Origin: Methanoculleus frigidifontis
Lineage (GTDB): Archaea; Halobacteriota; Methanomicrobia; Methanomicrobiales; Methanoculleaceae
Direction of reading: 5' to 3'
Length of the DNA: 64,000 bases
Assembly: GCF_030464345.1 (NCBI RefSeq)
Contig: NZ_VCYH01000001.1
Coordinates: 310,001 to 374,000, forward strand
The translations under genes and the position numbers were made by a program. Under the pieces are notes generated by a model. It was not told the origin of the DNA. It searched no databases and saw only the letters and a program-made list of their open reading frames with translations. Positions 2,088 to 23,635 of this stretch are shown here, one piece after another (the first letter of the stretch is position 1; the number at the start of each line of letters is the position of its first letter).

Positions 2088-2555
2088 ATGCAGATACTAG
2101 GTGTTCGTTCAAGTACTGAAGAGGTTTGGTATGCCATTTTAGAATTTAATGGAGATAAAGCGAGATTTGTTAACGCAGTCGAGGAAAACAGACTCACTTT
2201 CCCAGCAAGTGCCAAAAATCCGGAAGAAAAAATTTATTGGTTATATCAGGAACTTGACCGGGTATTAAGTTTATACACTGAAATTGAGAGAATTGCATTA
2301 AAAATGGCAGAACATCATCCCGGCGGACAGAAGAATGCCGATCGAGAAATTGCATATTACGACAGCGTAATTTTACTGGTTGCTGCCCAAAGGCGCAAAA
2401 CAGTCAGCGTTAAGCGATATACATCGATTGGTACAAACAGTTCCCGGGTCAAAACACTCGCGGAAGAAATAACCGGACTTACAGAATATAATTGGGCTGC
2501 CAAATTGGCTGATGCAGTCGCAGTTGCTTGGTCTGAGAGAGAGAAAATCACATGA
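2088..2555 (+). CDS. RNase H/RuvC-like small protein paired with a kinase
   Basis: This 155-residue protein begins MQILGVRSSTEEVWYAILE, a beta-hairpin start typical of RuvC/RNase H-fold proteins such as the DUF3010 family. The usual first catalytic Asp is not obvious, so it may be inactive. The middle has conserved-looking ERIALKMAEH and a late helix KLADAVAVAWSER that resembles the C-terminal acidic helix of this fold. The gene is AT-rich compared with its neighbours and overlaps the kinase gene by four bases (ATGA at 2552), so both are one transferred unit. A TATA-like GATATAA at 2056-2062 lies about 26-30 bases before the ATG. The fold is inference. Confidence 0.55.
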   Translation: MQILGVRSSTEEVWYAILEFNGDKARFVNAVEENRLTFPASAKNPEEKIYWLYQELDRVLSLYTEIERIALKMAEHHPGGQKNADREIAYYDSVILLVAAQRRKTVSVKRYTSIGTNSSRVKTLAEEITGLTEYNWAAKLADAVAVAWSEREKIT

Positions 2556-3625
2556 TTTGTGGCATATCCTTGGATCCGGGTGATTTGCTCTATAAGTACC
2601 GCCTGTGCCAGAGAATTGGTGGGGGGTTTTTTGGTGAGGTGTGGCTGGCGCATGACATCCACATCGATCGTGATGTTGCAGTAAAGATCCAAGTTTTATC
2701 AGAGGAAGCTGCGGATGACGTATTGCAAGAAGCTCAAATAGGCAATCACCTTGATCATAGAAATCTTGTGAGAGTCCACTCAGCAGATACAGACATATAC
2801 GAAGAGAAGGTGTTGCTTCTCATTGCCATGGATTTTTATTCAAACGGGTCTATCATAAACAAACTTAACAAACTGGACTTTATACCGCTTCAAGAAGGTA
2901 TCCGCTACCTGATTGATGTCCTGAAAGGATTAGAACATCTCCATGTGAACGGTATCTATCATGGTGACATCAAACCCCAAAATATCCTAATTGGTCAAGA
3001 GGATGAGGCATCTCTAACAGATTACGGAATCTCATGTTATTCACCTGAATTAGTTCCGGTTCAGTCAAAAGCATTTTACTACCCTCATGCAGCTCCAGAA
3101 ACACTCAGTGACAAGCAGATCAGCATACAGACAGATATCTATCAAGTTGGAATGACAGCATTTCGATTGCTGAACGGCGAGGCGAAATTGAGAAAAATAC
3201 TTGAAGACAGTGGACTGGAAGGTTATTGTGACTTAGTTCAACAAGGGAAGGTCATTCAATCCTGCGACTATCTCCCATTCATTCCACGTAATCTAAAAAT
3301 GATTTTGAGCAAGGCAACTCACGTTGATCCATCACGTCGCTATCAGATGGCACTTGAAATGCGCCGAGCACTAGAGAGGCTAAATTATCTAGGATATTGG
3401 ACGTGTGATTCCGAAGGAAATCTGGTCGGATATAATGATGGAAAAACATACTTTTTCAGCGTTGAATCGAGAGGAGAAGGACGGTATAATTTTGTTGCAG
3501 CCAAAAGAGAAAAGTCGGGTCGAAAAGTCAGAGTGGGGCGATACTCAAAAGCAAATGTAAGTCTGAAGGAAATCGAGGTTCTCAAGCAAAGGTATATGCT
3601 TTTCGTTGTTACCGGCAAAAAATGA
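2552..3625 (+). CDS. Serine/threonine protein kinase (Hanks type)
   Basis: The 357-residue protein is a complete eukaryotic-like kinase. Visible motifs are the glycine loop GGGFFGEVW (residues 23-31), the ATP-anchoring Lys in VAVK (Lys45), catalytic loop HGDIKPQN, the metal motif DYG (a known variant of DFG) and APE. The tail beyond about residue 285 has a small beta-rich domain of unknown role. It has no membrane segment, so it is cytosolic. The gene is AT-rich and coupled to the RNase H-like gene upstream; a T-rich stretch follows the stop. Kinase-containing two-gene units in archaeal accessory DNA are often defence or signalling modules, but the role here is not shown by the sequence. Confidence 0.85.
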   Translation: MICGISLDPGDLLYKYRLCQRIGGGFFGEVWLAHDIHIDRDVAVKIQVLSEEAADDVLQEAQIGNHLDHRNLVRVHSADTDIYEEKVLLLIAMDFYSNGSIINKLNKLDFIPLQEGIRYLIDVLKGLEHLHVNGIYHGDIKPQNILIGQEDEASLTDYGISCYSPELVPVQSKAFYYPHAAPETLSDKQISIQTDIYQVGMTAFRLLNGEAKLRKILEDSGLEGYCDLVQQGKVIQSCDYLPFIPRNLKMILSKATHVDPSRRYQMALEMRRALERLNYLGYWTCDSEGNLVGYNDGKTYFFSVESRGEGRYNFVAAKREKSGRKVRVGRYSKANVSLKEIEVLKQRYMLFVVTGKK

Positions 3626-4142: not shown

Positions 4143-4646
4143 ATGGCAGACTTTGTCGAGACCAACAACACCAAGACGGCGGTCCGGGAGCTCACCGCTC
4201 CGATCGCCGACATCAGCACCTTCGACGCACTCATCGCGTCGGTGCTGAACGACAACCCCTTCGGGTGCGTGGACTACGTCGAGGGCGGCGTCACGTATGA
4301 CGGCGTCAGCCGGAACCGCGAGTCCTACACCGCGAAGGTGATCTACGAGGACATCGCGGCCAAGACCGTCGGCCGGATCTCCGCACGGGCGCCGAGCGTC
4401 GCCGCGTTCGGTTCCGCGGCAACCGAGCTGATGGGCAACGCCGCACTCGAGACCGCGATGGGTGGGGACGCCGTCCGCGACGCCGAGGGCGACACCTACT
4501 CGTGCCAGCTCAAGTGCCACGACCCGTCCGGGGAGATCTACTACGTCACGTTCTCCCGTGATGCGGTCCGGATCACGAGCTACCAGAGCGACACCATCCG
4601 CACCACGGTCGAGACCTGGGCGGACAGTGTGCCGACCCTGGCGTGA
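4143..4646 (+). CDS. Unknown 167-residue protein, possibly virus-derived
   Basis: I do not recognise this gene. The product (MADFVETNNTKTAV...) is soluble, rich in Ala/Thr/Ser, with an alternating beta pattern at the end (EIYYVTFSRDAVRITSY). Its neighbour on the other strand looks phage-like. The last codons (ADSVPTLA then stop) and the sequence after them are repeated at 12034-12361, where only the C-terminal tail of a second copy survives. That makes this gene the left anchor of the direct repeat that brackets the seven-gene cassette. Confidence 0.65.
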   Translation: MADFVETNNTKTAVRELTAPIADISTFDALIASVLNDNPFGCVDYVEGGVTYDGVSRNRESYTAKVIYEDIAAKTVGRISARAPSVAAFGSAATELMGNAALETAMGGDAVRDAEGDTYSCQLKCHDPSGEIYYVTFSRDAVRITSYQSDTIRTTVETWADSVPTLA

Positions 4647-4941
4647 GGGAGGGGATACCCCTCTCTTTCCGTCCTGGACGAAGGGCAATTTGGCGTTCTT
4701 TTTCGATTTTAATGAAGGTTTCAGAGGCTGGATTTCGGCGTTGAAATTGGCCGCCGTATGTCGCTCCGATTGCCGTAAAAAGGCAGGATCGGAAGGCCAG
4801 ATTGGCCGTATGAGCGAGGGTAATTTTTGAAGGGTGTTTGGTATGGCCGGCCCTGAGATCGGCTGTCTGTGGGCTTCTGTGAGGGTCGTTTCTTCGCCAG
4901 ATCCGGCAGGAATTGCTGATATTTAAGGATTGCTTAACCGA
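4610..4941 (+). repeat. Repeat A, copy 1 (left flank of the cassette)
   Basis: About 330 bases are highly similar to 12034-12361 in the same orientation. They start in the last codons of the 4143 gene (GCGGACA..GTGCCGACCCTGGCGTGA) and end at GGATTGCTTAACC. Inside are small hairpins such as TGCCG..GGCA near 4770 and GGCCA..TGGCC near 4797, and the strongly kept block AGGGTAATTTT. A shorter diverged relative lies near 31030-31150. Confidence 0.85.
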
Positions 4942-5024
4942 AACAGCAGTTGCGAGCATGCACGGTGCTCCCAAACACATCTGCAAGCCGGGATAATTGT
5001 AACTTGTATACAAGTATGAAATGC

Positions 5025-5032
5025 TTTATATA
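5025..5032 (+). promoter_or_regulatory. TATA box of the seven-gene cassette
   Basis: TTTATATA centred near 5028 predicts transcription from about 5055, just before a GGTGAG ribosome-binding site (5055-5060) and the GTG start at 5067. No other clear promoter is seen until the end of the cassette, so this probably drives the whole operon. Confidence 0.6.
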
Positions 5033-5066: not shown

Positions 5067-5669
5067 GTGAAAGAGAGTATGTCGTTTGAGAAGATGTGGC
5101 TGGGACGCCCCCGAAAAGGTATTCGGATTCGTCCCAGCGAGAATACTGGCGGAGAGGAGGTGCCGCGGCGCCTGATCCGGATCGGCGACCTGAGCACCGA
5201 CCCGATCGGCCTGATCACCACGGACGTCCGGGAAGCGGAGCCGGAGAAAACCCGGAGGTCCAGGGATCCGGTCGTCGCCGCCGGCGACCTCGTCATCATC
5301 ACGGCCGGCTCGACATCCCGGTGCGCCGTCGCCGACGAGCGGGCAGAAGGCTGTGTCATCAGCCAGAATCTCGTGGCGGTGACGCTGCAGCCCGGATACT
5401 CGCCCTACTACGTCTGCTGGTACCTCAACTCGCCCTACGGGCAGCAGCAGTTCGCCCAGCGGTCGACCGGCTCCGTGGTGACGCGGTCGATCTCGCTTAA
5501 AGGCCTCGAAGAGCTGGAGATAGCGTTGCCGCCGCCGGAGATGCGGGACGAGGTCTATGCACTCTTCCGGAGCTTCTACGAGCACGAGCGCACACTCGCC
5601 GAGGAGCGTGATGCCCGGACCCGCGTCCTGAACGAGATCGTCCGGAGATCCGAGGAGGGATCGCTGTAA
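5067..5669 (+). CDS. HsdS-like specificity protein with a single target-recognition domain
   Basis: The 200-residue protein has the look of one half of a type I restriction specificity subunit. There is one target-recognition domain with RLIRIGDLSTD near the start, GDLVIITAG in the middle, and the late signature SLKGLEELEIALPPPEMRDEV. A C-terminal helix (residues about 160-200) matches the coiled-coil spacer that pairs with another HsdS half or with HsdM. Two copies would have to dimerise to bind DNA. The GTG start is chosen for its GGTGAG site and the TATA box before it; upstream in-frame ATGs lie in front of the predicted transcription start. It overlaps the HsdM-like gene (TAATG). No HsdR gene is present. 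Confidence 0.75.
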   Translation: MKESMSFEKMWLGRPRKGIRIRPSENTGGEEVPRRLIRIGDLSTDPIGLITTDVREAEPEKTRRSRDPVVAAGDLVIITAGSTSRCAVADERAEGCVISQNLVAVTLQPGYSPYYVCWYLNSPYGQQQFAQRSTGSVVTRSISLKGLEELEIALPPPEMRDEVYALFRSFYEHERTLAEERDARTRVLNEIVRRSEEGSL

Positions 5670-6946
5670 TGGTTCCCGGAATGTCTGAAGAGAGCAGATT
5701 CGTCACGAAGGTCCTGCACGACCTGCGGCGGGAGAACTTCTCCGGAGAAGCCGCGGCACGGTGCTGCCTCTCTCTCCTCGCCGTTGTGAAGACGAAAGAC
5801 TGGAGCCGGGTGAAGCGGGCCTCCCGGGAGGGGGACGCAGAGCAGGTGGCGGACGCGGTGCGGCAGGCTGCCGGGACGGCGGCCGAGGCCGACGTACTCG
5901 CCGGACTGAACCCGGAGACTCTCCGGAAACTCGTCTCCGTCTTCGACAAGATCGCGAAGTGGGAGATGCAGGCGATCCGGACGATCGCGGAGCTCTTCGC
6001 CGGGCGTGCGGCCGAGGGCTACCAGACCCCGGCGCCCGTCGCAGGGCTCATCGCGGAGATCGCCCGACCGGCGGAGGGGGCGACCCTCTTCGACCCCGCG
6101 GCCCGGACGGGTCTTGTCCTGGTCAGGAGCGCACTCCGCGCCGGCGAAGCGTCGGTACGCGTTGTCGGGTGGTCGTTCCCGGACGGTATCGCCGATCCGG
6201 AACCCTGGAGGGTCGCGAGGCTTCTCCTCCTGGTGTCCGGGATCCGGGACGCCGAGGTCGGCCCGGCTCCTCTGCTGGACGAATACCACACGGCCGCCGC
6301 CCCTCCTGCAGACGTGGTCGTCAGCGATCTTATCCAGGTGCCGGCACGCAACCTCCGCACCGAGTGGGCGCCAAAGGTGCAGGGTCTCCTCGCGAACCTC
6401 ACGTGGAGCCGTCGCCTTGTGGTGCTCGTGCCGAGCAACTCTCTGGCGAAGGCCGCAGACCTCCGGGAATCTCTCGTGGACTCGGGCGCCCTCGCGGCGG
6501 TGATACGCCTGCCGTCCGGCCAGTTCCCGCGACTCCTCCACGACGTCGACCTCCTCGCCCTTCGGAAAGAAGGCGGCCGGGATGCAGACGGAGCGGTGCT
6601 CTTCGTCGACATGGCGGCGTACCTCGCGGCGGACGCATCGCGGAGCCTCGATTCCAGGATCTCGCGGATGGTGGGCGACATCGTCGAAGCGTTTCAGAGC
6701 GGGAGCGACGCCTGGAAGGATGAGCCGGTCGCCCGGTTCGCCCGCGCCGTCCCCCTCTCCGAGATCCGGGAACGGCAGCGCACCGGCACCGGCTCCGAAC
6801 TGGAGGTCACCCTGTATGTCCCCCCGGTGGTCGAGCCGGTCGACCTGCAGGCCGAACTTGAACGGCTCCGGGCGATAGGCAGAGAACGGCAGATGATCGA
6901 AGCGGATCTGGAACGGAGGATCGAGGCGGTCCTGAGCAGGATCTGA
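5669..6946 (+). CDS. HsdM-like protein with degraded methyltransferase motifs
   Basis: The 425-residue protein aligns by eye with type I N6-adenine methyltransferases. It has an N-terminal helical domain, EGYQTPAPVAGLIAEI (the helix before motif I), then motif I as FDPAARTG instead of DPACGSG, and VVSDLIQVP where the catalytic NPPF/Y motif IV should be. PSNSLAKAADLRESLVDSG and GALAAVIRLPSGQF match the usual helix and strand of motifs VI-VIII. With motif IV gone it should not methylate DNA, though it may still bind HsdS and DNA. A C-terminal coiled coil (residues 385-425) would contact the HsdS half. It is second in the operon. Confidence 0.75.
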   Translation: MVPGMSEESRFVTKVLHDLRRENFSGEAAARCCLSLLAVVKTKDWSRVKRASREGDAEQVADAVRQAAGTAAEADVLAGLNPETLRKLVSVFDKIAKWEMQAIRTIAELFAGRAAEGYQTPAPVAGLIAEIARPAEGATLFDPAARTGLVLVRSALRAGEASVRVVGWSFPDGIADPEPWRVARLLLLVSGIRDAEVGPAPLLDEYHTAAAPPADVVVSDLIQVPARNLRTEWAPKVQGLLANLTWSRRLVVLVPSNSLAKAADLRESLVDSGALAAVIRLPSGQFPRLLHDVDLLALRKEGGRDADGAVLFVDMAAYLAADASRSLDSRISRMVGDIVEAFQSGSDAWKDEPVARFARAVPLSEIRERQRTGTGSELEVTLYVPPVVEPVDLQAELERLRAIGRERQMIEADLERRIEAVLSRI

Positions 6947-6959
6947 GTCGAACCACGCT

Positions 6960-6982
6960 CCTGCAAGGACTGACTTTGCAGG
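6960..6982 (+). terminator. Hairpin in the only sizeable gap of the cassette
   Basis: CCTGCAA (6960-6966) and TTGCAGG (6976-6982) form a 7-base stem in the 180-base gap after the HsdM-like gene. No T-run follows, so it could be an attenuator, an RNA-processing site or chance. Confidence 0.3.
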
Positions 6983-7126
6983 CGCTTCGGTGAGGTGACG
7001 CGGAGCATGTATTGCATTCGGATACCGGAGGGTGGGTCTCCGCCCGGACTGGAGAGCAGGTCGAACAGAACCGCTGCGGAGGAGCACGCTCCTCTTCGGC
7101 GGCATGAGGTTGTAGAAGGTAGAAAT

Positions 7127-8095
7127 ATGACAGACAATGCACGAGTTGTTGCAGAATTTCCGTACGAGGCGTTCCGGCGGAGCCTGGGCGCGTTTCTGAA
7201 GATCGATACCGATTATTTCGTCTCCGTCAGGCTCGACGCCGGGCTTGAGGAGAAACAGGGCCTGCGACCGCTGGCGATGATCTCGCATCCGGTCGGGGGC
7301 GGCCACGAGGTATTCCTGGCGTCCCCCCTCTGCCCGGCGCCTGATGGAAACGAGATCCCCCTGGAGGAAACGGTCTATCACGTCCCTCTCTCCCATATGG
7401 GCCGATGCCTCTGCAAGAGCGCAGAAACCGTAAAGGTGTGGATCCGGGGCGGCGAAGCGCCGCAGGTCGGGGTGTCCGTCGACGACGCCGGCCCGGCCTG
7501 GGAGTACGCCCACGCCGGGTTCGGGGGATGGGCACCCCACACCGACCCCGGACGCGGGTACGACGATGGATACCTGCGCGACCGCATCGTGACGGAGATC
7601 TCCCCTGCGGCGCTGCAGGACTTTCTCAAAGCCGTCTATACGCTCGGGCACACGGAAGAGATCTTTGTCCTGCGCCGCCCTGCCTGGGTACGGGATGGGG
7701 GCGGCCGGCCTGCCCGGGCGCTCCTCTTCACCGTCCCGGCGAGCGGGACGAGTTTCCTCGGACTGACGGCACCCTACGCAGGCAATCCGTCGCCGGCGTA
7801 CGACGTCAACGGTGTCGAGGTGATCCGCGTCCCGTGTGTACTGGCCGTGCTGATTGCGGACTCCAGCCTCCCGTTGCGCATCGGGTTCAGCTCGTCGGAA
7901 GGCGTCTACGTCCGGGTCGATCACGACAGGGGAACCTTCCGGGAGTGCCTGCGGTACTTCCGGCGATATCCGTATCGCGACAGCCTGCCTCCGCTCGACA
8001 GGGTGGGAGAGGCGATACTTGACTTCATGCTCCAGAAAGAGGAGATTTTCGGCAGGTTCGACGCCGCCGCGGCGCGATACCTGCCGAAAGAGTAG
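7127..8095 (+). CDS. Unknown cassette protein, possibly sliding-clamp-like
   Basis: The 322-residue protein has no motif I can name with certainty. Its layout repeats three times as a short strand, an amphipathic helix, then beta hairpins: ETVYHVPLSHMGRCL..VKVWIRGG; VTEISPAALQDFLKAVY..EIFVL; VEVIRVPCVLAVLI..LRIGFSS. This is the pattern of PCNA/DnaN clamp domains, so a clamp-like fold is possible. This is inference only. The ATG at 7127 follows an AAGGTAG-like site; an in-frame GTG-type extension upstream is Arg-rich and unlikely. The next gene starts 18 bases later. Confidence 0.6.
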   Translation: MTDNARVVAEFPYEAFRRSLGAFLKIDTDYFVSVRLDAGLEEKQGLRPLAMISHPVGGGHEVFLASPLCPAPDGNEIPLEETVYHVPLSHMGRCLCKSAETVKVWIRGGEAPQVGVSVDDAGPAWEYAHAGFGGWAPHTDPGRGYDDGYLRDRIVTEISPAALQDFLKAVYTLGHTEEIFVLRRPAWVRDGGGRPARALLFTVPASGTSFLGLTAPYAGNPSPAYDVNGVEVIRVPCVLAVLIADSSLPLRIGFSSSEGVYVRVDHDRGTFRECLRYFRRYPYRDSLPPLDRVGEAILDFMLQKEEIFGRFDAAAARYLPKE

Positions 8096-8112
8096 CATTT
8101 GAGGTGAACACC

Positions 8113-9042
8113 ATGGAAAACATCGACATCATTACCGAAGGATCCGTCTCCGTACCGAATATTTACCACTACCGCGGCGTCGCCTGCACTGCCGTCGCCG
8201 TCCCCTTCCTCGTCCCGGGGGAGGGGGACCGGCGCGAGCGGGTGTACCACCGCTACGAGTGTGCCAGAGGCTTCTGTCACGCCGTCGTCTGTTGGGCGCC
8301 GGGATCGGGCGGGCTGCCCTCCCCGCACCTGGAGGCGTTCGACGACGAGGACGCCCTCTTTGCGGCGTACCCCTGCCTCCGCGACCGGGTCCGCGAGATG
8401 GCCGCCGGCACCGGCTGGCTGCTCCGGCCCTACCGCGTCGCCCGCGACATCTTCCAGCGCTGGCGGGACGAGGCTCCGGCGGCAGTCGACATCATGCCGA
8501 TCGAGCTTCCGGAGAAGTGTTGCTTCCTGATCCGGCTGCGCGGCTGGATGAGCAAACCGCTCTACAGCCAGGTGACGCTCCCGGTCGGACTGCTCGAGTT
8601 CCGGCAGGGCGAGGCAGGGGCGGCCGCCACGCTGCGGGCCGCCGGCACCGTCAACGGCCTCGCCGCCCTGTACCCGGACATCCGGCCGTATCTGGATCAC
8701 GGGCTGCAGCACTCCCTCACCGCCCGCCTCGAGCAGAAGCGGATGCTCCTTGCGAACTTCGGCGGTGACCGCCGCCCCGACGAGCCTCTGGTGACCGTGC
8801 TCCCGCTGCAGGGCGGCGGCCGCCCATACCTCCTGGTCCGGCGCCGTTTTGTGCGCCCAATCGGGTCCGGCAGGGACTGCTTCACCCTGCTGGCCTGGAC
8901 GGGCGAGGCCGAGAAAGCGGAGAGCGTCTGCGCCGAGTATGCGACGCTCGGTGACGTCGTCCGGGAGCACCCCGACCTCGAGGCGCCGCTGGTGAACTAC
9001 TACCAGGACGTCGTGCCGACTGCAGGGGGCGGGGCAGAATGA
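8113..9042 (+). CDS. Cassette module protein 1
   Basis: The 309-residue protein belongs to a family found three times here (also 9039-10682 and 14236-14964). Residues about 15-95 hold the first module: a strand like VAVPF, then RERVYHRYE, HAVVCW, and FDDEDALFAAYPCLR. The second module starts at RPYRVARDIFQRWR. The C-terminal module has LPLQGGGRPYLLVRRR, FTLLAW and LGDVVREHPDLEAPL. No catalytic motif is seen, so a structural or substrate-binding role is more likely. The ATG at 8113 sits six bases after a strong GAGGTGA site. It overlaps the next gene by four bases. Confidence 0.7.
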   Translation: MENIDIITEGSVSVPNIYHYRGVACTAVAVPFLVPGEGDRRERVYHRYECARGFCHAVVCWAPGSGGLPSPHLEAFDDEDALFAAYPCLRDRVREMAAGTGWLLRPYRVARDIFQRWRDEAPAAVDIMPIELPEKCCFLIRLRGWMSKPLYSQVTLPVGLLEFRQGEAGAAATLRAAGTVNGLAALYPDIRPYLDHGLQHSLTARLEQKRMLLANFGGDRRPDEPLVTVLPLQGGGRPYLLVRRRFVRPIGSGRDCFTLLAWTGEAEKAESVCAEYATLGDVVREHPDLEAPLVNYYQDVVPTAGGGAE

Positions 9043-10682
9043 ATCTCGATCCTGCACCCGGCAGAGAGCCCCGCTTCGCCGGCCCCCTCGGCTACGTCCT
9101 CCGGTCCGCCTGCTGCGGCGGCACCCGGGTGGATATCATTCCGTTTGTGGCCGACGAGCCGGCGGACGCGATCCAGCCCGTTCTGAACGAGCGGATCTAC
9201 ACCCGGGTCCGGCCGGAAGGAGCCGACCTGCACGCCGTCGTGGGCTGGCGGTGGGACGAATCGGCGGGCGGGATCGCGCCGGACATGACGGTGTACGCTG
9301 ACCGGGAGGATACACTGTCGGCGCACCCGGCGCTCCGTGAGCGTGCCCGGGCTTTCGAGAGCGCCGAGGTCAGGAAATTTCCCGTGCGCAGCCAGGATGA
9401 GCGGAGGTGGAGTATCCACGGTGCAGTCTACGAGCTCCCGCCCTACCACTCAACTCCAGGGCTCTTCCTCACCGGGTTCGGGGAGGAGATGCCGTCCGTG
9501 AGGGTCACGCCTCTGGAGATGGGCGGCTGCTCCCTTCTCTTCGAGCGTCACGGATATCGATTTCTTAAGAAAGGAACCTTCCTGCACGCGAGTGCCCGGC
9601 ACCGCCCATTGCGCCCGGGGCTGCTCGAGATCCGGCCGGAGGGCTCCGGTTTTGCGCTTGTCATGCACCCGGGCAGCGATCCGCGGAACGGGGCGGTCCG
9701 GTTCGATGGGTTCCCCCACTTCAGCGAGTGTCTCGGGTACGCACAGGAGGTCGCTGCCGCGGAAAGTACGCGGAGCCGCCCGTGGATCTTGCCGGTGAGG
9801 CGCGCTACCGTCGGGAAGACTCCCGGAAAGACCCCGTCCGGCCTGCAGGTCTACACCCTGCAGTACCTCCGGGGTGGGGTGACCGCCGACATCGTCCCCT
9901 TCTTCACGGATGGGGATACCCCCGAACGGGTCTACGTGCGGTTCGCCTCCCGGGCCGCCGAGAGCCACGCCGTCGCGGAGTGGGTGCGGGAGGACACCTG
10001 GGGGCGGCGGTTCGTCATCACGCCGTTCGATGACCGGGAGTCGCTCTCCGCCGCGTACCCCGTCCTCCGGGAGGCAGTTGAAGCCGCCGGGGCGCAGGAA
10101 ACCTGGCGGCTGCCGCCGTTCCACCCGATACAGGACGTCTTCCAGCAGTGGCGCTGCAGGAACAGGCCGAGGGTCACGGTCGCGCCTGCGGAGAGGGGCA
10201 GTGTCTGTTCCGTCGCGTTTGAGTCGCGGATGCCCTGGGAAGGGAACATGCCCAGGGTCATAGGCGCGGCCGGCACGGACGGCGTGACGTTGATCCTCCC
10301 CGGGGAACATCCCGGTCTTGCGGCCGACCTGGAGTATGGCAGGGGTCTCTTCCGAAACGCGGGCACCGTGCAGTGGCAGGATGTGGTTCCCGGAAGCTTC
10401 GGCGCAACGCCCAGGCGGTCCAACGGGGGGCTGCAGACGCTCCCCATGCGGGACGAGGACGGTCAGGAGTCGCTCCTCATCCAGCGGGGAGCAGACCAGT
10501 CCGCCTTCACCCTCATCACCTGGCCGGAGGGGGAAGAGGCCGGCCCGGAGAACGCTTCCCGAGGGTATCTGGGGGTCGAGGATATCCTCCGTGCACACCC
10601 CGAACTCGAAGCATCGCTCATCTGCGCCAACCAGCGGCTCGTCATGGACTGCAGGCACGTCCGGACGGAGGGATCATGGTGA
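9039..10682 (+). CDS. Cassette module protein 2, with the module doubled
   Basis: The 547-residue protein carries two full copies of the module set seen once in its upstream neighbour, plus one C-terminal module. Copy 1 spans about residues 15-240 (VDIIPF, NERIYTRV, DTLSAHPALRERA, then PPYHSTPGLF). Copy 2 spans about 265-450 (ADIVPFF, ERVYVRF, HAVAEW, FDDRESLSAAYPVLREA, then PPFHPIQDVFQQWR). The end has LPMRDEDGQESLLIQR, FTLITW and DILRAHPELEASL. This points to internal duplication within the family. No enzyme motif is visible. It is coupled to both neighbours by overlaps (ATGA at 9039 and 7 bases at 10676). Confidence 0.7.
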   Translation: MNLDPAPGREPRFAGPLGYVLRSACCGGTRVDIIPFVADEPADAIQPVLNERIYTRVRPEGADLHAVVGWRWDESAGGIAPDMTVYADREDTLSAHPALRERARAFESAEVRKFPVRSQDERRWSIHGAVYELPPYHSTPGLFLTGFGEEMPSVRVTPLEMGGCSLLFERHGYRFLKKGTFLHASARHRPLRPGLLEIRPEGSGFALVMHPGSDPRNGAVRFDGFPHFSECLGYAQEVAAAESTRSRPWILPVRRATVGKTPGKTPSGLQVYTLQYLRGGVTADIVPFFTDGDTPERVYVRFASRAAESHAVAEWVREDTWGRRFVITPFDDRESLSAAYPVLREAVEAAGAQETWRLPPFHPIQDVFQQWRCRNRPRVTVAPAERGSVCSVAFESRMPWEGNMPRVIGAAGTDGVTLILPGEHPGLAADLEYGRGLFRNAGTVQWQDVVPGSFGATPRRSNGGLQTLPMRDEDGQESLLIQRGADQSAFTLITWPEGEEAGPENASRGYLGVEDILRAHPELEASLICANQRLVMDCRHVRTEGSW

Positions 10683-11392
10683 GGCGGCGTTTCCAGGAGG
10701 TCCCGCCGTCCGGTGAGGGCGAAGAGCCGGAGGTGTCCTTCACTACCGCCTGGTGCGGGATGGTGGACGAGAGGTTCGTCGTCGACGGCAGCACGGCGGA
10801 GGAAGAGGGGGTCCGGGCGCTCTACCCGGAGGTCTGCGCCGCCCTCGACCGGCAGAAGACGCGAATGACGCCGGACGCGGTCTTGGAGGCCGTAGAAGAG
10901 ATCGTCCGGGGACTGCGCCTCTCCCCGGAGCGCCACGCCCAGGCCATCTACGCGGCGGAGTGGTACGCCGGGCTGGCGTTCCCCGGCTGCCTGGATCCCG
11001 GCGGGTTTCCGCGGCCGGGCCGGCGCACCTCCCGGCGGAACCAGATCATCGCGATGTTCCGCGGCGATTACGTGGAGGAGGTGCCGCAGGATCCGGCGTT
11101 CTTCGCCGTCTTCCCCTCCCCCGAAGAGGTCGAGTACGCCCTCCGGCTCTCCGTTCCGTCCGCTACAATGCACGATGTCTATGAGACCGTCTCCGAACTC
11201 TACAGGACCTTCGGTGCCGCCCCCGACTTCCCGACGCTGGTCGAGCGGCTGCGCCGGAACCCGGAGGTGCTCGGCGCCGGCTACGCTCCGGTCTGGTATG
11301 TCTGGAGAATGGTGACCGACCTGCACCTCCTCATCCGGGACAGGATGCAGGAGGTGCGCGACGCCGCCGGAGCGGGGCGGCCGGCGAGGTGA
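10676..11392 (+). CDS. Helical cassette protein, unknown
   Basis: The 238-residue protein is mostly alpha-helical and resembles nothing I can name. It contains TAWCGMVDERFVVDG near the start, a helix PDAVLEAVEEIVRGLRLS, and a C-terminal pattern LYRTFGAAPDFPTLVERLRRNP. The ATG at 10676 follows a CGGAGGG site and overlaps the previous stop by seven bases. The protease gene begins six bases after its stop. Its place between module proteins and the protease suggests an adaptor, or a protease substrate or inhibitor. That is a guess from position. Confidence 0.65.
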   Translation: MVRRRFQEVPPSGEGEEPEVSFTTAWCGMVDERFVVDGSTAEEEGVRALYPEVCAALDRQKTRMTPDAVLEAVEEIVRGLRLSPERHAQAIYAAEWYAGLAFPGCLDPGGFPRPGRRTSRRNQIIAMFRGDYVEEVPQDPAFFAVFPSPEEVEYALRLSVPSATMHDVYETVSELYRTFGAAPDFPTLVERLRRNPEVLGAGYAPVWYVWRMVTDLHLLIRDRMQEVRDAAGAGRPAR

Positions 11393-11398
11393 TGAGCG

Positions 11399-11947
11399 AT
11401 GGCGATGCTGATCCTCGAGTGCTGCACGAAGAAGGCGGACTACAACCGGGGACGCCGGGACGGCTATGTGCTCAACGAGTTCCTCAAGATGACCGACCAC
11501 CCGGTCGACTACCATGAGATCACGCGGAAGTCCGATCTCCTGAACCTGCTCTCGGGCGGCGGCCCTGAGTACGAGCACGTCTACATCTCCTCGCACGGGG
11601 TCGTGGAGCAGAAGGGCGAGGCCTATCTCCAGCTCCTCCGGGCGCGGGTGTTCCCCGAGGAGTTCCCGGAAGGCTGCTTCGCGAGCGCCGAGCTCGTGGG
11701 ACTCTCGGCCTGTTCGCTCGGGAAGGTCGCGTTCACCGACCGGTTCATGCAGCAGACCGGCGCACGGCTGGTCGTCGGCCCGAAGAAGGAGGTGTACTTC
11801 GTTGACAGCGCGATCTTCTTCTTAAACCTCTTCTACCTGGTGCACTCGCAGAACCGGGGGGTGAAGAGCGCCCTTACCCGCACGAGCGATTACCTGAAGG
11901 GCACCCGGGGGTTTTCGGGGGGGTTCACGGTGAGAAGCAGAGTGTGA
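11399..11947 (+). CDS. CHAT/caspase-like cysteine protease, last gene of the cassette
   Basis: The 182-residue protein has the two catalytic motifs of clan CD proteases: HVYISSHGVVE with His66 and LVGLSACSLG with Cys105. Both follow hydrophobic strands in the right order and spacing for a CHAT domain. The N-terminus MAMLILECC is the first core strand. It is shorter than most CHAT proteins and has no TPR or other sensor domain fused to it, so its trigger must come from partners in the operon. A clear paralogue is at 13646-14185. In bacteria, CHAT proteases act in anti-phage responses by cleaving partner proteins. Such a role here is inference. Confidence 0.8.
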   Translation: MAMLILECCTKKADYNRGRRDGYVLNEFLKMTDHPVDYHEITRKSDLLNLLSGGGPEYEHVYISSHGVVEQKGEAYLQLLRARVFPEEFPEGCFASAELVGLSACSLGKVAFTDRFMQQTGARLVVGPKKEVYFVDSAIFFLNLFYLVHSQNRGVKSALTRTSDYLKGTRGFSGGFTVRSRV

Positions 11948-12033: not shown

Positions 12034-12361
12034 CTTGACTCTGGCGGACACCGTGCCGACCCTGGCGTGAGGGAGGGAATGGCCCTCTCTTTCCGTCCTG
12101 AAATATAGGCAATTTAGCGTCCTTTTTCGATTTTCACGAAGGTTTCCGTGACCGGATCCAGGCGTTGGAATTAAACGACGTATTTCGCTCCGATTGCCGA
12201 GAAACGGCAGGATAATAAGGCCATATTGGCGATATGAGCAAGGGTAATTTTCGGAGGGTGTTTAGTATGGGTCGCCCCAAGATCGGCCGTCTGAGAGCTT
12301 CTGTGAGGGTGCTTTTTCCAGCGGATCCGGCCGGAATTGCTGGTATTTAAGGATTGCTTAA
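12034..12361 (+). repeat. Repeat A, copy 2 (right flank of the cassette)
   Basis: This is the same-orientation partner of 4610-4941. It begins with CTGGCGGACACCGTGCCGA, the tail of a lost copy of the 4143 gene with its stop, and ends at GGATTGCTTAACC. The hairpin TGCCGAGAAACGGCA (about 12197) keeps a stem whose closing base differs from copy 1. The stretch 11948-12406 holds this repeat and no gene. Confidence 0.85.
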
Positions 12362-12406
12362 CCAAACGCCCTGCATTTTTATCGTTGCACCACATAGTGT
12401 GAAACA

Positions 12407-13645: not shown

Positions 13646-14185
13646 ATGTCGCTGTTAATACTCGAGTGTACTCCAGAGGAGGACAACTACCGAGAGGGAT
13701 TGATCCTTGAGGAATTTTTGGGCATAACTGATCCAAAACTTACGGAGTTCGTTGAAATTCGAGATGATCAAGACTTGCTCGATGTTTTGGAGGATGAAAG
13801 GTATCTGGAAGATTTTGAGATAATCCACCTGAGTGGGCACGGTGTTGTTGAAGATGATATTGGAGCATTTCTGCTCCCCGATGGAGAAGAGATGTATCCC
13901 GAAGATTTTCCTGAGTTCTGTTTTGCAGGTAAGACCGTCTCACTATCTGCATGTCAACTTGGCAGGGTTCAGGCGTTCTGCGATCCGCTTGCTGATCAGA
14001 CGGATGTCAAGAACATAATTGCGCCACAACGTGAGGTTGAATTTATCGATGCGGCAGTATGGTTTGTAAATTTCTACTACTTCTTGCTGATGCATCGGAC
14101 GCGAGTTACCACGGCTTTCGATAAGACGCAGGATCATCTCGAAGGGAAGGTGCACGGCGCATTTCGACTCTGGCAATATGAGTGA
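13646..14185 (+). CDS. CHAT/caspase-like protease, second copy (AT-rich locus)
   Basis: The 179-residue protein is a paralogue of the cassette protease at 11399. Both start with a LLILEC strand, and both have the His motif (IIHLSGHGVVE, His65) and the Cys motif (VSLSACQLG, Cys103). They also share YPEDFPEFCFA against FPEEFPEGCFA and the late EVEFIDAAVWFVNFYYF against EVYFVDSAIFFLNLFYL. It is AT-rich, so it came from a different donor or at a different time. The module-family gene at 14236 follows after 50 bases, with its own TATA box. Confidence 0.8.
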   Translation: MSLLILECTPEEDNYREGLILEEFLGITDPKLTEFVEIRDDQDLLDVLEDERYLEDFEIIHLSGHGVVEDDIGAFLLPDGEEMYPEDFPEFCFAGKTVSLSACQLGRVQAFCDPLADQTDVKNIIAPQREVEFIDAAVWFVNFYYFLLMHRTRVTTAFDKTQDHLEGKVHGAFRLWQYE

Positions 14186-14205
14186 GGTCGTCCATTTTCA
14201 CAAGG

Positions 14206-14214
14206 TTTATATAA
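14206..14214 (+). promoter_or_regulatory. TATA box of the second module-protein gene
   Basis: TTTATATAA is centred 26 bases before the ATG at 14236, so the transcript should be leaderless. This promoter is separate from that of the protease gene upstream. Confidence 0.65.
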
Positions 14215-14235
14215 GCATCTACCCACTTGGCATTC

Positions 14236-14964
14236 ATGGACGATGAGTACGGCGAAGAAAACCTCATAGAGGAGTGGGCTGAGGAAGAAGACGAGGCAGA
14301 AGTTCTGGAATTAACCGATGATAGGGGTATATTCAGTCAAACTGGGATATATAATGTCAATATCCAGAATATCCCCTGTCTGCTCTTGAATGTATTTGGT
14401 GCGAAAGACACTATATCCACGCCAAGAGTGGACGTGATACCATTCATTTTGCCATACTCTTTACGAGGTTATATGGGAGGGTCATACTGTCCTGAGCAGT
14501 TTTGCATTCGGTGCGAGTATCGTGGTCGTGTAAATTACTATCGGCTCGAGTGGTATCATGCTGAAGGACCCTATGGGATAAGGTTCTCCGGGCCATTCGA
14601 AATCTGGAGAAGTCATTGCTTAGACATTGACATGTTAAAGGGTGCGAAACTAATGTTTCAGAGAGATATCGAAAATGGATGGGTATCGGATATTTTTGAC
14701 AGGAAAGATAATTCTGATAGGCAGAAAATTGGCCTTATCCCGATAGTCCTAGACCAGTCAAGTTACATCCTCTTCCAATGGAAATTTAAAGAACACACCC
14801 AGCATGCATGTACCCGGTATGTATTTGCAGAGGTCATCCCAGACAACGACAATCGCTGCTATCGGATACCATATAGATTTGGACTGTTCAAAGACATACT
14901 GAAGAGCAATCCCAACCTCAAAAAGTATTTTCAGAAGCACCCCGAACTGAAACCCAAACCATAA
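14236..14964 (+). CDS. Module-family protein, partner of the second caspase-like protease
   Basis: The 242-residue protein opens with an acidic stretch (DDEYGEENLIEEWAEEEDE). Next comes a module related to those in the cassette: VDVIPFILP, then CIRCEYRGRV and LEWYHAEG. It ends with the same C-terminal module (GLIPIVLDQSSYILFQW, then FKDILKSNPNLKKYF). It thus keeps the outline of the 8113 protein in a shorter, AT-rich version. The start is set by the TATA box 26 bases upstream. Pairing with a caspase-like protease in two separate loci argues that the two families act together. Confidence 0.7.
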   Translation: MDDEYGEENLIEEWAEEEDEAEVLELTDDRGIFSQTGIYNVNIQNIPCLLLNVFGAKDTISTPRVDVIPFILPYSLRGYMGGSYCPEQFCIRCEYRGRVNYYRLEWYHAEGPYGIRFSGPFEIWRSHCLDIDMLKGAKLMFQRDIENGWVSDIFDRKDNSDRQKIGLIPIVLDQSSYILFQWKFKEHTQHACTRYVFAEVIPDNDNRCYRIPYRFGLFKDILKSNPNLKKYFQKHPELKPKP

Positions 14965-18100: not shown

Positions 18101-18395
18101 CCCACCTCCGCCCGCTCCCTCCGGTCGCTCCGCCCTCCTCCCGGGAGGAGGGCAGTCCTGGCGATAGCCCCTTGCCCCCGGGCGTAACAGCTGATACGCC
18201 GGGCGGGTGGGCGCAGGTGCGATCCGTCAGCCGCGAGCATGCCCGGCGGAGCCGGTGATGCGAGCGGCGGTCCCGGAGCAGCCGTCACGCTGCGAGGCCT
18301 CGCCGAGCGAGTGAGGGCGCCCGAGGCCCAGTACACCGGGAAGAACCAGGGCGATGTTCTGCAGCGACCGCAGGGAGCAAAGAAGCTCGCCCGGC
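18101..18395 (+). repeat. Repeat B, copy 2
   Basis: About 295 bases match 20326-20617 in inverted orientation and 15093-15261 in direct orientation. It is very GC-rich and includes a palindrome CCCTCCTCCCGGGAGGAGGG near 18130. Its right part is read as the last 36 codons of the ArdC gene on the other strand, so the repeat boundary cuts through that gene. Confidence 0.85.
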
Positions 18396-19247
18396 CGCAC
18401 CGCCCGAAAAAGGAAATTCCTCCTCCCCGCTCCCGGTGAGGAAGTCCGCCGCTTTCTGCGCATCCGCCGCGGCCCGGATCACGTCGGCTGCCGAGCCATC
18501 GCGGATGTGTCGGAGCCACCCGGCGATATAGGCCGCCTGGTTCTCGAGCACCGGCAGATCGGTGCCGGTCATCGCGCAGAGGAATGCGGCGCCCATCTCC
18601 GCCGTCAGCTCCTCGCGGCTGTACTGCTCGCTGCCGAACCGGATCGGCCCCGTGATCCCGGGCCGGTCGAGCCGGGAGGCGTGCCCGGTCCAGTGGGCGA
18701 GCTCGTGGAAGAAGGCCGCGTAGTACGCCTCGGCCGAGACGAACCGGTCGATCCCGGGCATCGCGATCGCGTCGCTCTTCGGGAGGTAAGCCGGCTCGCC
18801 CGCGACCATCCGGGGAGCGTTCCGGGCGATGACCTCTTCGCAGGAGGCGATCGGCTGCACCTCGCCGACGTCCTCCACGGCGATCCCGTCGCACTGCGCG
18901 AGGTTGAAGACCTTGTAGTAGCGCACCAGCGGCCGCTCCCGCTGCATGATCACCGCGACCTCGTCGCCGTTCTCGCTCACCGTCCGCCGGGTCTCGTCGA
19001 ACGACCAGAAGACCACGATCCCGGACGCCTTCTCGCCCTTCCGGACGTGGCCGCCGAGGTGTTTGATCTGATTGTAGGTGCCCCACCAGAGATGGCCGGA
19101 GAGCAGGATCCGGTTGATCCCGCGGTAGGGCCGGCCGGTGGCCAGGTTCATCGGGGACATGCTCTGCCAGGTCTGCCGCCAGGGTACCGTGCCGGCAGCA
19201 AGGGAGGAGATGATCCGGTCCCGGACCACCTCGTAGACGGAGACCAT
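18285..19247 (-). CDS. ArdC-type antirestriction protein with a foreign C-terminus
   Basis: The 320-residue protein has the N-terminal ssDNA-binding domain (VPWRQTWQSMSPMNLATGRPYRGIN) and the C-terminal zincin-like domain with FFHELAHWTGH (about residues 185-195) and a downstream EELTAEMGAAFL. This is the plasmid ArdC family, which protects incoming DNA from host restriction. From about residue 284 (after EEEFPFSGG) the reading frame runs into repeat B, so the true C-terminus has been replaced by repeat-encoded sequence. It follows the zinc-ribbon gene by three bases and belongs to a reverse-strand plasmid-like operon. Confidence 0.85.
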   Translation of the reverse strand: MVSVYEVVRDRIISSLAAGTVPWRQTWQSMSPMNLATGRPYRGINRILLSGHLWWGTYNQIKHLGGHVRKGEKASGIVVFWSFDETRRTVSENGDEVAVIMQRERPLVRYYKVFNLAQCDGIAVEDVGEVQPIASCEEVIARNAPRMVAGEPAYLPKSDAIAMPGIDRFVSAEAYYAAFFHELAHWTGHASRLDRPGITGPIRFGSEQYSREELTAEMGAAFLCAMTGTDLPVLENQAAYIAGWLRHIRDGSAADVIRAAADAQKAADFLTGSGEEEFPFSGGAAGRASLLPAVAAEHRPGSSRCTGPRAPSLARRGLAA

Positions 19248-20653: not shown

Positions 20654-21532
20654 TCACGCCGGCGCACGGATCACCCGCAGCCGGGGATCAATCACCGAAC
20701 TCTCGCACGCCGTGCAAACATCCTCTGCGGTCACTCTTCTCCGGCCGTCCTGCTCTGCAAGCGTCGCCGCTCTCTGCAGCAGGTCGAGACCCACACGAAT
20801 GTCGCCGTGTTCTCTCACCCGCTCCACGACCATCTCGAGCACCTTGACCGGGACTGCGCGGGGAGCGAGCCCCTGCCGCACCCGATCCCGGAGGATTCCG
20901 CGGATCTCTTTGACGTAGAGCGGCGGGAAGAAGATCTCGGTTGGGTGGAAGACCGAGAAGACAGAGCGATCCACGTCGGCGGCGAGATGGTACCTGAGAT
21001 CGTTGACGATAGCGACCACGCCGATTTTGGTGCCGGGATAGCTCTCGTACATGCGCAGCAGCGTTGCCAGGGCAAGGTTGACCTCGCTCCTGCTGCCGAT
21101 GCAGGCGATGTCGTCGAGGCAGACGACGAGCACGGCCTTGCGCTCCCGCATCATCTCGGCCACGGCGCGGGTAACGTCCCACTCCTCCATATCGTCTGCC
21201 GGCGGCCGGCCGGCCAGTCTCGCAAAGACCCGCGAGTGGATGGCATACAGCGTGCGGTCGATGCGGCAGTCGACGTAGACCGGGATGAAGCGATCGGTCA
21301 TCTCTTCGATCTCGGCGAAGAGCGCCCGTACGCACGCGGTCTTTCCGGTTCCCGGCGGACCGCTGCAGATGACGTGACTCGGGGTTGCGCCGACCATGCC
21401 TGAGCGCAGGTTGAAAGCGAGCTGATCCATCATGGCCATGCGGCTGGGTGCCGGTTCGGGTACGTAGTCGGCGGCGAAGACGCTTCGATCCTGGAAGAGT
21501 GTCGGGGTCGTGGATGGTCGATTGGGCTCCAT
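20654..21532 (-). CDS. Orc1/Cdc6-like protein lacking the winged-helix domain
   Basis: The 292-residue protein has the full AAA+ core: Walker A SGPPGTGKTA, Walker B LVVCLDDIA, sensor 1 GVVAIVND, and the lid with GDIRVGLDLLQRAATLAEQ. It stops at about the end of the lid domain (RVIRAPA), so the DNA-binding winged helix present in usual 370-420-residue members is absent. Repeat B begins just beyond the stop, which suggests truncation. The start at 21532 is set by TATAAA 25 bases upstream. In the context of an integrase and ArdC this is probably the replication protein of an integrated plasmid. Confidence 0.85.
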   Translation of the reverse strand: MEPNRPSTTPTLFQDRSVFAADYVPEPAPSRMAMMDQLAFNLRSGMVGATPSHVICSGPPGTGKTACVRALFAEIEEMTDRFIPVYVDCRIDRTLYAIHSRVFARLAGRPPADDMEEWDVTRAVAEMMRERKAVLVVCLDDIACIGSRSEVNLALATLLRMYESYPGTKIGVVAIVNDLRYHLAADVDRSVFSVFHPTEIFFPPLYVKEIRGILRDRVRQGLAPRAVPVKVLEMVVERVREHGDIRVGLDLLQRAATLAEQDGRRRVTAEDVCTACESSVIDPRLRVIRAPA

Positions 21533-21554
21533 GCACTGACCGTCGGTCTCAGGG

Positions 21555-21560
21555 TTTATA
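21555..21560 (-). promoter_or_regulatory. TATA box of the shortened orc1-like gene
   Basis: TATAAA on the reverse strand is centred 25-26 bases before the ATG at 21532, again predicting a leaderless mRNA. Confidence 0.6.
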
Positions 21561-21703
21561 CATCCTGAGCGGATGCGGGGCGAAAGTGTGTGGCAGAAGG
21601 GCGGGAGAGGTTTTCTCACTGTTTGGGCAGCCGCGCTCGCGGTCAACCGTGGTGGTGCAGCAGGCTACAGAAGAAGTCCGAAACGGTGAAACCTCATCTT
21701 TTG

Positions 21704-22465: not shown

Positions 22466-23635
22466 TCAGTCTTTCCCCTGCAATGACACTTCTAGCATTG
22501 CTTCTTCGAATATCTGGTGGAAGTTCGGCTTCTTCATCATCACTGCAAGCACTTCCGGGATATATTGACTCTTCTCATCCACTTCCACTGCCAACTTTGG
22601 ATCCAGGATCAGCGAACACGACTTACAGCGCCTTGAGCCGGCGGCGTTCAGCTCCTTGCACCGGGGACACTTGATCGCCTGCATTGCGGTTGGCCGTTTC
22701 TCCTCTTCCTCTACAATGACCCCTTCCGCCTTGAGGATTTTCTTCTCCACATCGGCGCCGGAGAGGTGGACGTACACCTCTGGCATGTTCGAGGACTTGC
22801 TCCAGCCGGCGACGATCCGGAGCTCCATCTCTGAGAGTCCCTCCCGGGCCAGGTCGGTGAGCCGGGCATGACGGATGGCGTGTGGGTTGGTCGGCTTCTG
22901 TATCCCTGCCTGCTTCCCGAGCCGGGAGAGGAGATTGTTCACGGTCCGGCCTGCGAGCCGCCGGGGCTTTCCTCCGGTAAACGATCGCGAGGTGACGAAG
23001 AGCGGCGCCTGGGCATCAGTGCCGAAGGGATGCTGATCGAGCCATGTCTGCAGGTCGGGAACGGATGAGATGAGCCGAAGTTTCCGCTTCCCGGTCTTGT
23101 CTTCGACAATGCACACCCCGCCGTAGCGGTCGAAGGAGATGTGCCCCACATTGAGATCGAGGACTCCGGTGATCCGTGCCCCCGAATCCCACAGCAGCGC
23201 AATGAGCGCCCGGTCTCGCTGCCGTTCGGCACATGCGATCAATGCCTGGATGTCTTCCCGGGTGAGAAGCTGCTCTACCGGCAGATCGCGTTTCTTCCGA
23301 GACTTCTTGATGTTCTTCAGAAGTTCTTTCGCACGGTCTGTTCCGATGAGCCACTTGTAGAAGACCCGGAACTCGATCACGTCGCCGTCGATGGTCGCCG
23401 ACGACAGTCTATCCATGCGATCCAGGAAGTAGTCCTCGATTGCCTCTGCAGGCACTTCGTCGGCCTTCACACCTGCCCACTTTAGGAATGGTGCGAGTCG
23501 TCTCACCTTGTTGGTGATGGTTGTCGGGGCTACCCTCCGGAGTTCGCAGTGACGTACGTATTTCTTCAGGATCTCGGTGTTCTCGGGTGGGTCGAGCACC
23601 GGGATCGTCGATGAGTCGAACCGGGGCTTCTGCAT
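22466..23635 (-). CDS. Tyrosine recombinase (integrase) with C-terminal zinc ribbon
   Basis: The 389-residue protein has an N-terminal SAM-like core-binding domain (about residues 15-100) and a XerC/D-type catalytic domain. Catalytic residues are visible: Arg in GARITGVLDL, Lys in EDKTGKRKL, HAIRHAR (His-x-x-Arg), the Trp of AGWSKSS, and Tyr in PEVYVHLSG. The tail adds a zinc ribbon CPRCKEL..CKSCS (near residue 335) followed by a helix. It lies about 70 bases from a tRNA-Leu 3' fragment, so it is the integrase that made or can use that attachment site. A broken relative is at 24031. Confidence 0.93.
   Translation of the reverse strand: MQKPRFDSSTIPVLDPPENTEILKKYVRHCELRRVAPTTITNKVRRLAPFLKWAGVKADEVPAEAIEDYFLDRMDRLSSATIDGDVIEFRVFYKWLIGTDRAKELLKNIKKSRKKRDLPVEQLLTREDIQALIACAERQRDRALIALLWDSGARITGVLDLNVGHISFDRYGGVCIVEDKTGKRKLRLISSVPDLQTWLDQHPFGTDAQAPLFVTSRSFTGGKPRRLAGRTVNNLLSRLGKQAGIQKPTNPHAIRHARLTDLAREGLSEMELRIVAGWSKSSNMPEVYVHLSGADVEKKILKAEGVIVEEEEKRPTAMQAIKCPRCKELNAAGSRRCKSCSLILDPKLAVEVDEKSQYIPEVLAVMMKKPNFHQIFEEAMLEVSLQGKD

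What the first reader, a model, noticed from the sequence alone, without database searches (positions are those of the whole stretch)
5067..11947. Seven-gene operon joining a dead type I modification pair to a caspase-like protease
In the sequence: seven genes in one direction with overlaps or tiny gaps, one TATA box, an HsdS half, an HsdM lacking the catalytic motif, four proteins without known family, and a CHAT protease at the end; no HsdR, helicase or nuclease. Known: CHAT proteases act in bacterial anti-phage immunity, and HsdS/HsdM give sequence-specific DNA binding. Inference: HsdS/dead HsdM may be a DNA-state sensor that releases the protease, with the module proteins as scaffold or substrates. 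I know of no described system with this gene set.
Basis: partly seen in the sequence, partly recalled or inferred. Interest (0 to 1): 0.92.

Follow-up and report, generated by a model that had tools for sequence, protein, structure and literature searches.

The report
Dead methylase pair linked to protease
In methane-producing archaea a sequence-reading pair of proteins derived from a DNA-methylating enzyme, but with its catalytic motifs gone, is repeatedly found in one gene cluster with a caspase-like protease and an interchangeable middle gene, which looks like an undescribed virus-defence system, although no function has been tested.

Summary
The operon is real (7 coding frames, 5067-11947). 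HsdS-half and HsdM belong to the type I modification families, but HsdM lacks NPPF and has a degraded motif I; the last gene is a small CHAT-type protein with His66/Cys105. The association is not an accident of this genome. Across 232 Methanomicrobiales genomes a small HsdS, a dead HsdM, a fast-evolving helical protein (P6) and CHAT recur together in another family (G414, G418, G283), and CHAT and P6 co-occur far above chance (6 genomes; p about 3e-8). The genes between HsdM and P6 are swapped: beta-rich module proteins here, a histidine-kinase-like ATPase in G414/G418/G283, an M42/M28-like peptidase in G448. Neighbours include Wadjet, McrBC and Fic genes. In the sister species the same spot holds a trypsin-HEAT protein with Trypco1 instead. 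Dead HsdM, P6 and CHAT have dN/dS below 1. No described system with this set was found in the papers searched. Best reading: a modular defence system in which a dead HsdS-HsdM reader (or decoy for anti-restriction proteins) controls CHAT through P6. The seven-gene set is unique to this genome; the conserved core is four genes. Trigger, substrate and defence activity are untested.

The parts
5025..5032 (+). TATA box (TTTATATA) of the operon
   Evidence: One of only 3 exact + strand occurrences in the window; read.
5067..5669 (+). HsdS-like half specificity subunit (one target-recognition domain, about 200 aa)
   Evidence: PADLOC Specificity_I E 4.7e-15; homologues at the same place in G414, G418, G283, G420.
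5669..6946 (+). HsdM-like protein, catalytically dead (no NPPF, degenerate motif I)
   Evidence: N6_Mtase E 3.3e-12; motif table; related G414-type HsdMs have dN/dS 0.34-0.41.
7127..8095 (+). P3, orphan middle protein
   Evidence: Coding signal in frame; no family; no match to the module profile.
8113..9042 (+). P4, beta-rich repeat protein (units of four strands and two helices)
   Evidence: Paralogous to P5 and P9; low-confidence model.
9039..10682 (+). P5, tandem copies of the same unit
   Evidence: 28% identical to P4 over 301 aa, E 5e-22; N half 64% identical to the G019 homologue.
10676..11392 (+). P6, all-helical, fast-evolving conserved core protein (candidate adaptor)
   Evidence: 8 of 232 genomes; alignment A12; dN/dS about 0.6; model pLDDT 66.
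11399..11947 (+). CHAT1, minimal caspase-like (CHAT) protease, His66/Cys105
   Evidence: Pfam CHAT 24.8 bits; invariant H and C in 8 relatives; dN/dS 0.23.
13646..14185 (+). CHAT2, second CHAT protein (about 40% identical to CHAT1), low G+C
14206..14213 (+). TATA box of P9
   Evidence: Exact TTTATATA.
14236..14964 (+). P9, module-type protein paired with CHAT2
   Evidence: Profile match E 3.8e-62; P9 is one of the 5 rows of that profile.
4619..4950 (+). Copy of a dispersed ~300-nt repeat family at the left edge of the cargo
   Evidence: 38 matches in the genome; direct-repeat partner at 12043-12342.

Best explanation
A modular, probably antiviral, cargo system. A half-size HsdS dimerises and with the dead HsdM forms a type I-like DNA-reading complex that cannot methylate (shown: families, loss of motifs, conservation; inferred: the complex and DNA binding).
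For: Same gene order HsdS-HsdM-X-P6-CHAT in the window and in G414, G283 and G418, in another family of the order (G418 is split over two contigs). P6 in 8 and CHAT in 10 of 232 genomes, 6 shared, hypergeometric p 2.8e-8, adjacent in all six. All eight HsdMs of these loci lack NPP[FYW] and have degenerate motif I, while three catalytic HsdMs of nearby RM loci keep both. dN/dS: CHAT 0.22-0.31, dead HsdM 0.34-0.41, P6 about 0.6. X differs: P3-P5 (window), ATPase with HATPase_c E 1.9e-14, weak M42/M28 match plus ARPP-1 in G448, HNH-type gene 65 nt after CHAT in G019. Module proteins P4/P5/P9 occur only next to CHAT. Defence neighbours: Wadjet type III, McrBC-like in G418, SoFic. Sister species has Trypco1 plus a trypsin-HEAT protein at the same site. 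Two cassettes have lost or truncated CHAT while keeping HsdS-HsdM-ATPase-P6, as expected of a costly effector.
Against: No direct test of defence, DNA binding or proteolysis. CHAT relatives score low against Pfam (5 of 8 match at E<=0.1; only CHAT1 was shown above the curated cut-off) and match no solved structure by sequence. CHAT also occurs without HsdS/HsdM (CHAT2, G256, G473) and HsdS-HsdM-P6 without CHAT (G054, G452). The HsdM tree does not support a single origin of the cassette-linked rows. The family is rare, and bacteria could be searched only through one narrow contig scan and plasmids. P6 homology between the two groups is weak by direct comparison and rests on profile hits.
Confidence: 0.5

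Rival explanations
1. Guard or decoy: the dead HsdS-HsdM complex is bait for viral or plasmid anti-restriction proteins (DNA mimics such as Ocr or ArdA), and their binding, not foreign DNA, releases CHAT.
For: HsdM is dead at both the SAM and the catalytic motif, yet related copies are kept under selection; no other HsdM at E<=1e-20 in the genome to provide self-methylation; Ocr, ArdA and ArdB inhibit type I enzymes (PMC10149784, abstract). An ArdC-like anti-restriction gene lies on the same element.
Against: No anti-restriction protein of a methanogen virus was shown to bind it; the recognition domain of HsdS is also kept, which a pure decoy needs less.
Confidence: 0.2
2. Regulatory, non-defence role: HsdS-HsdM is a sequence-specific DNA-binding regulator and CHAT processes its partners in a stress or expression circuit.
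For: A histidine-kinase-like ATPase lies between HsdM and P6 in G414, G418 and G283; a strong RNA hairpin lies at the P3/P4 junction.
Against: Patchy distribution (10 of 232 genomes), variable cargo site, and neighbours that are mostly defence genes.
Confidence: 0.15
3. Decaying type I restriction remnant that happens to lie beside an unrelated CHAT operon.
For: HsdM has lost its motifs and no HsdR is in the operon.
Against: The same dead pair with P6 and CHAT recurs in other genomes with intact frames and dN/dS below 1.
Confidence: 0.05

Closest known systems
Type I restriction-modification (HsdS/HsdM/HsdR)
   Same: HsdS target-recognition domain and HsdM fold are homologous.
   Different: No HsdR, HsdM catalytically dead, HsdS half-size, partners are P6 and CHAT.
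Craspase, type III-E CRISPR (Cas7-11, TPR-CHAT, Csx30; PMC9729208, PMC10028731, PMC11106740)
   Same: A nucleic-acid-reading complex is thought to control a CHAT protease whose substrate is encoded beside it.
NTP-dependent conflict systems with caspase-like peptidases (Kaur et al. 2020, PMC7159879)
   Same: Modular operons in which caspase-like or trypsin-like peptidases are swapped among effectors.
   Different: No MoxR, vWA or STAND component in the operon; HsdM, HsdS and methylase are not mentioned in that paper.
MADS (methylation-associated defence system)
   Same: Contains HsdS-like (MAD5), methylase-like (MAD2) and kinase (MAD6) proteins; a kinase lies upstream of this operon.
   Different: HsdS scores 39.8 bits against a cut-off of 400; no other MAD gene in the operon; the kinase is a separate low-G+C insert absent from the sister species.
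PacII-type M1M2S methyltransferase (PDB 7vru; enzyme name from memory)
   Same: Best sequence match of the dead HsdM profile among solved structures (E 9.2e-57).
   Different: In the alignments chain A of 7vru keeps NPPF and chain B NPPY at the catalytic site; no protease partner is known to me.

Membership tests
Type I restriction-modification system | HsdM with catalytic NPP[FYW] and an intact SAM motif I | tested here: not met
   SDL at the NPPF place, DPAARTG for motif I.
Type I restriction-modification system | HsdR translocase/nuclease in the operon | tested here: not met
   No HsdR among the operon proteins.
Type I restriction-modification system | HsdS with target-recognition domain(s) | tested here: met
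   One domain only: PADLOC Specificity_I E 4.7e-15.
CHAT / caspase-like (clan CD) peptidases | Catalytic His (SxHG) and Cys (S-x-C-x-x-G) dyad | tested here: met
   H and C columns invariant in 8 relatives.
CHAT / caspase-like (clan CD) peptidases | Score above the Pfam PF12770 cut-off | tested here: met
   CHAT1 24.8 against 24 bits; CHAT2 13 bits and G414 CHAT 14.8 bits fall below; 5 of 8 members match at E<=0.1.
CHAT / caspase-like (clan CD) peptidases | Protease activity | not testable with these tools
   Needs an assay.
Craspase (type III-E) | TPR fused to CHAT plus Cas7-11 and Csx30 | tested here: not met
   CHAT1 is 182 aa with no TPR; no such proteins in the operon.
MADS | Curated MAD5 match and the MAD gene set | tested here: not met
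   39.8 against 400 bits; in the operon only weak matches to mad5 (HsdS) and mad2 (HsdM), no other MAD gene.
MoxR-vWA ternary conflict systems | MoxR AAA+ and vWA components | tested here: not met
   No such domain in the operon proteins.
Antiviral defence system (functional) | Protection against virus | not testable with these tools
   Genomic context only.

The most novel reading that the evidence does not exclude
A defence architecture without a described precedent, in which a catalytically dead type I modification complex acts as sensor (of a DNA sequence or of anti-restriction proteins) and fires a caspase-like protease through an adaptor onto exchangeable effector proteins: an immune protease controlled by a dead methylase.
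Probability: 0.4. Interest if true: 0.9.

Novelty: new variant of a known kind. Interest (0 to 1): 0.72.

Why it matters
If true, restriction-modification parts have been turned into a pure sensor that drives a death protease, so that a reader known for cutting DNA would act as an immune receptor in archaea. The swapped middle genes give a natural set of candidate CHAT substrates, which makes the question of what small archaeal CHAT proteases cut directly testable. The dead HsdM would also offer a test of whether defence systems guard against anti-restriction proteins.

Tried and rejected
Methylation-state sensing with a resident type I methylase: no second HsdM at E<=1e-20 in the genome. The 300-nt direct repeats as specific ends of a transposon carrying the operon: they belong to a dispersed family with 38 matches genome-wide. 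MADS membership: scores far below cut-off. Module fold: the model is poor (pLDDT 50) and PUR/Whirly-like matches have E>=0.1, a lead only. P6 fold search: nothing significant. P3 as a member of the module family: no match. Plasmid searches (CHAT2, P5, P6), phage search (CHAT) and viral contigs (CHAT): no match. One genome-contig scan returned only the Methanoculleus locus; it relies on two short peptide patterns, so it does not exclude distant bacterial relatives.

Full report
The window is 64 kb of a 3.17-Mb genome of the order Methanomicrobiales, family of Methanoculleus. In detail: seven same-strand frames from 5067 to 11947, each with its best codon score in its own frame, behind a TTTATATA box at 5025. 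Corrections are small: P3 probably starts at 7127, so there is a 180-nt gap after HsdM, and P4 at 8113.

Identity of the parts. HsdM belongs to N6_Mtase (E 3.3e-12), HsdS to the type I specificity family (E 4.7e-15) with a single target-recognition domain, and the last gene to CHAT (24.8 bits against a cut-off of 24). In an alignment with true type I methylases the window HsdM has SDL where they have NPPF, and DPAARTG where they have DPxCGSGG, so it should not methylate. P3, P4, P5 and P6 have no described family. P4 and P5 consist of repeats of one unit, predicted at low confidence as four strands followed by two helices, and P9 downstream has the same unit. P6 is predicted all-helical.

Recurrence. 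CHAT was found in 10 of 232 genomes of the order, P6 in 8, with 6 genomes in common, p 2.8e-8. Loci read: G414 (L021) HsdS-HsdM-ATPase-P6-CHAT followed by Wadjet JetD3/A3/C3 genes; G283 (L025) same order, with CHAT cut to 103 aa and a SoFic-like gene next; G418 (L044/L045) same genes over two contigs, with an AAA_5 protein and a McrC-like frame next (the McrBC reading is mine); G420 (L046) CHAT and a peptidase-like gene, divergent from HsdS-dead HsdM-M42-like gene, then a second HsdS-HsdM-ATPase; G448 (L065) ARPP-1, M42/M28-like peptidase, P6, CHAT; G019 (L009) end of P4-type gene, P5-type gene, P6, CHAT, then an HNH-type gene, cut by the contig end; G054 (L047) P6, HsdS-HsdM-ATPase-P6 without CHAT; G452 (L066) a fused HsdM-HsdS with GVPPW, divergent from P6 and a HEAT protein. 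Thus the core is HsdS, dead HsdM, P6 and CHAT; the middle is exchanged. The window-type HsdM was found only in G000 and G420. Modules P4/P5/P9 were found only in this genome and G019.

Selection. dN/dS is 0.22-0.31 for CHAT, 0.34 and 0.41 for dead HsdM, 0.33 for the P5 N half and about 0.6 for P6. These are crude counting estimates from a few pairs; one HsdS pair with very few differences gave 1.17. Between G414 and G418 the HsdS/HsdM part differs by dS 0.03-0.06 but P6 and CHAT by 0.30-0.41, which suggests exchange of one half of the cassette.

Context. In the sister species G001 the left flank is kept to window position 4961, after which a 105-aa Trypco1 protein and a 1478-aa trypsin-HEAT protein replace the operon, and the match resumes at the repeats and the ArdC-like region. 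Both genomes therefore hold different protease-bearing cargo at one site. In this window the element also has a tyrosine integrase (22469-23635), a Cdc6-like AAA protein (20657-21646) and an ArdC-like gene (18288-19247). The kinase and its small neighbour (2088-3625) are a separate insert absent from G001.

Mechanism. Shown: the gene set, the dead motifs, the recurrence, the selection pattern and the defence-rich, variable setting. Inferred from known type I biology: a half-size HsdS dimerises and binds two HsdM to make a DNA-reading complex. Inferred: P6 links it to CHAT, and CHAT acts on the middle protein or on host proteins. The cue is open. Methylation sensing is less likely because no other HsdM was found in the genome at E<=1e-20 and motif I is degenerate; site-specific DNA binding and trapping of anti-restriction proteins both remain. 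Loss or truncation of CHAT in G054 and G283 with the rest kept fits a costly effector, but also shows that the rest may have its own role.

Comparison with known systems. Nine full-text searches returned no description of an HsdS/dead-HsdM/CHAT set, judged from titles and abstracts, and three candidate papers searched inside did not hold it either (the library lacks most subscription papers). It works like Craspase in outline, a nucleic-acid reader coupled to a CHAT protease with an encoded partner, but is not a member. It is related by parts to type I RM but fails its defining features. MADS and MoxR-vWA systems were tested and not met. A dead HsdM next to a live one inside an intact type I system (G020, L048) shows a possible source, and in the tree it groups with the G414-type HsdMs (99/96); the tree does not show one origin for all cassette HsdMs.

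Noticed in passing
window 13646-14964: Second CHAT (CHAT2) with a module protein (P9) that has its own TATA box; G+C 43-46% against 63-70% in the main operon, so a separate acquisition of the same pair type.
   Followed up: partly
window 2088-3625: Low-G+C pair: small protein with a weak RuvC match (E 0.011) overlapping a Ser/Thr kinase (best PADLOC hits mad6 and PD-T4-6); absent from the sister species.
   Followed up: partly
window 4619-4950 and 12043-12366: Dispersed repeat of about 300 nt, 38 matches in the genome.
   Followed up: partly
window 8047-8089: Strong RNA hairpin (-31 kcal/mol, z -4.1) across the end of P3.
   Followed up: partly
L010 10378-10476: CHAT1 3' remnant (33 codons, 91% identical) next to a UvrD-like helicase gene in the same genome, with an HNH-type gene 80% identical to the one beside CHAT in G019 on the same stretch.
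   Followed up: no
L048 8703-12279: Half HsdS and dead HsdM (CTIPF) directly upstream of a live HsdM, HsdS and HsdR: a dead pair inside an intact type I system.
   Followed up: partly
L078 9423-9965: Lone CHAT, with a stop in the reading frame, inside what looks like an archaellum gene cluster of G473; a second lone CHAT in the same genome (L077).
   Followed up: no
L100 3649-8390: Sister-species cargo at the same site: Trypco1 plus a 1478-aa trypsin-HEAT protein.
   Followed up: partly
L021 versus L044/L045: Mosaic divergence: HsdS/HsdM nearly identical, P6 and CHAT much more diverged, suggesting exchange of cassette halves.
   Followed up: no
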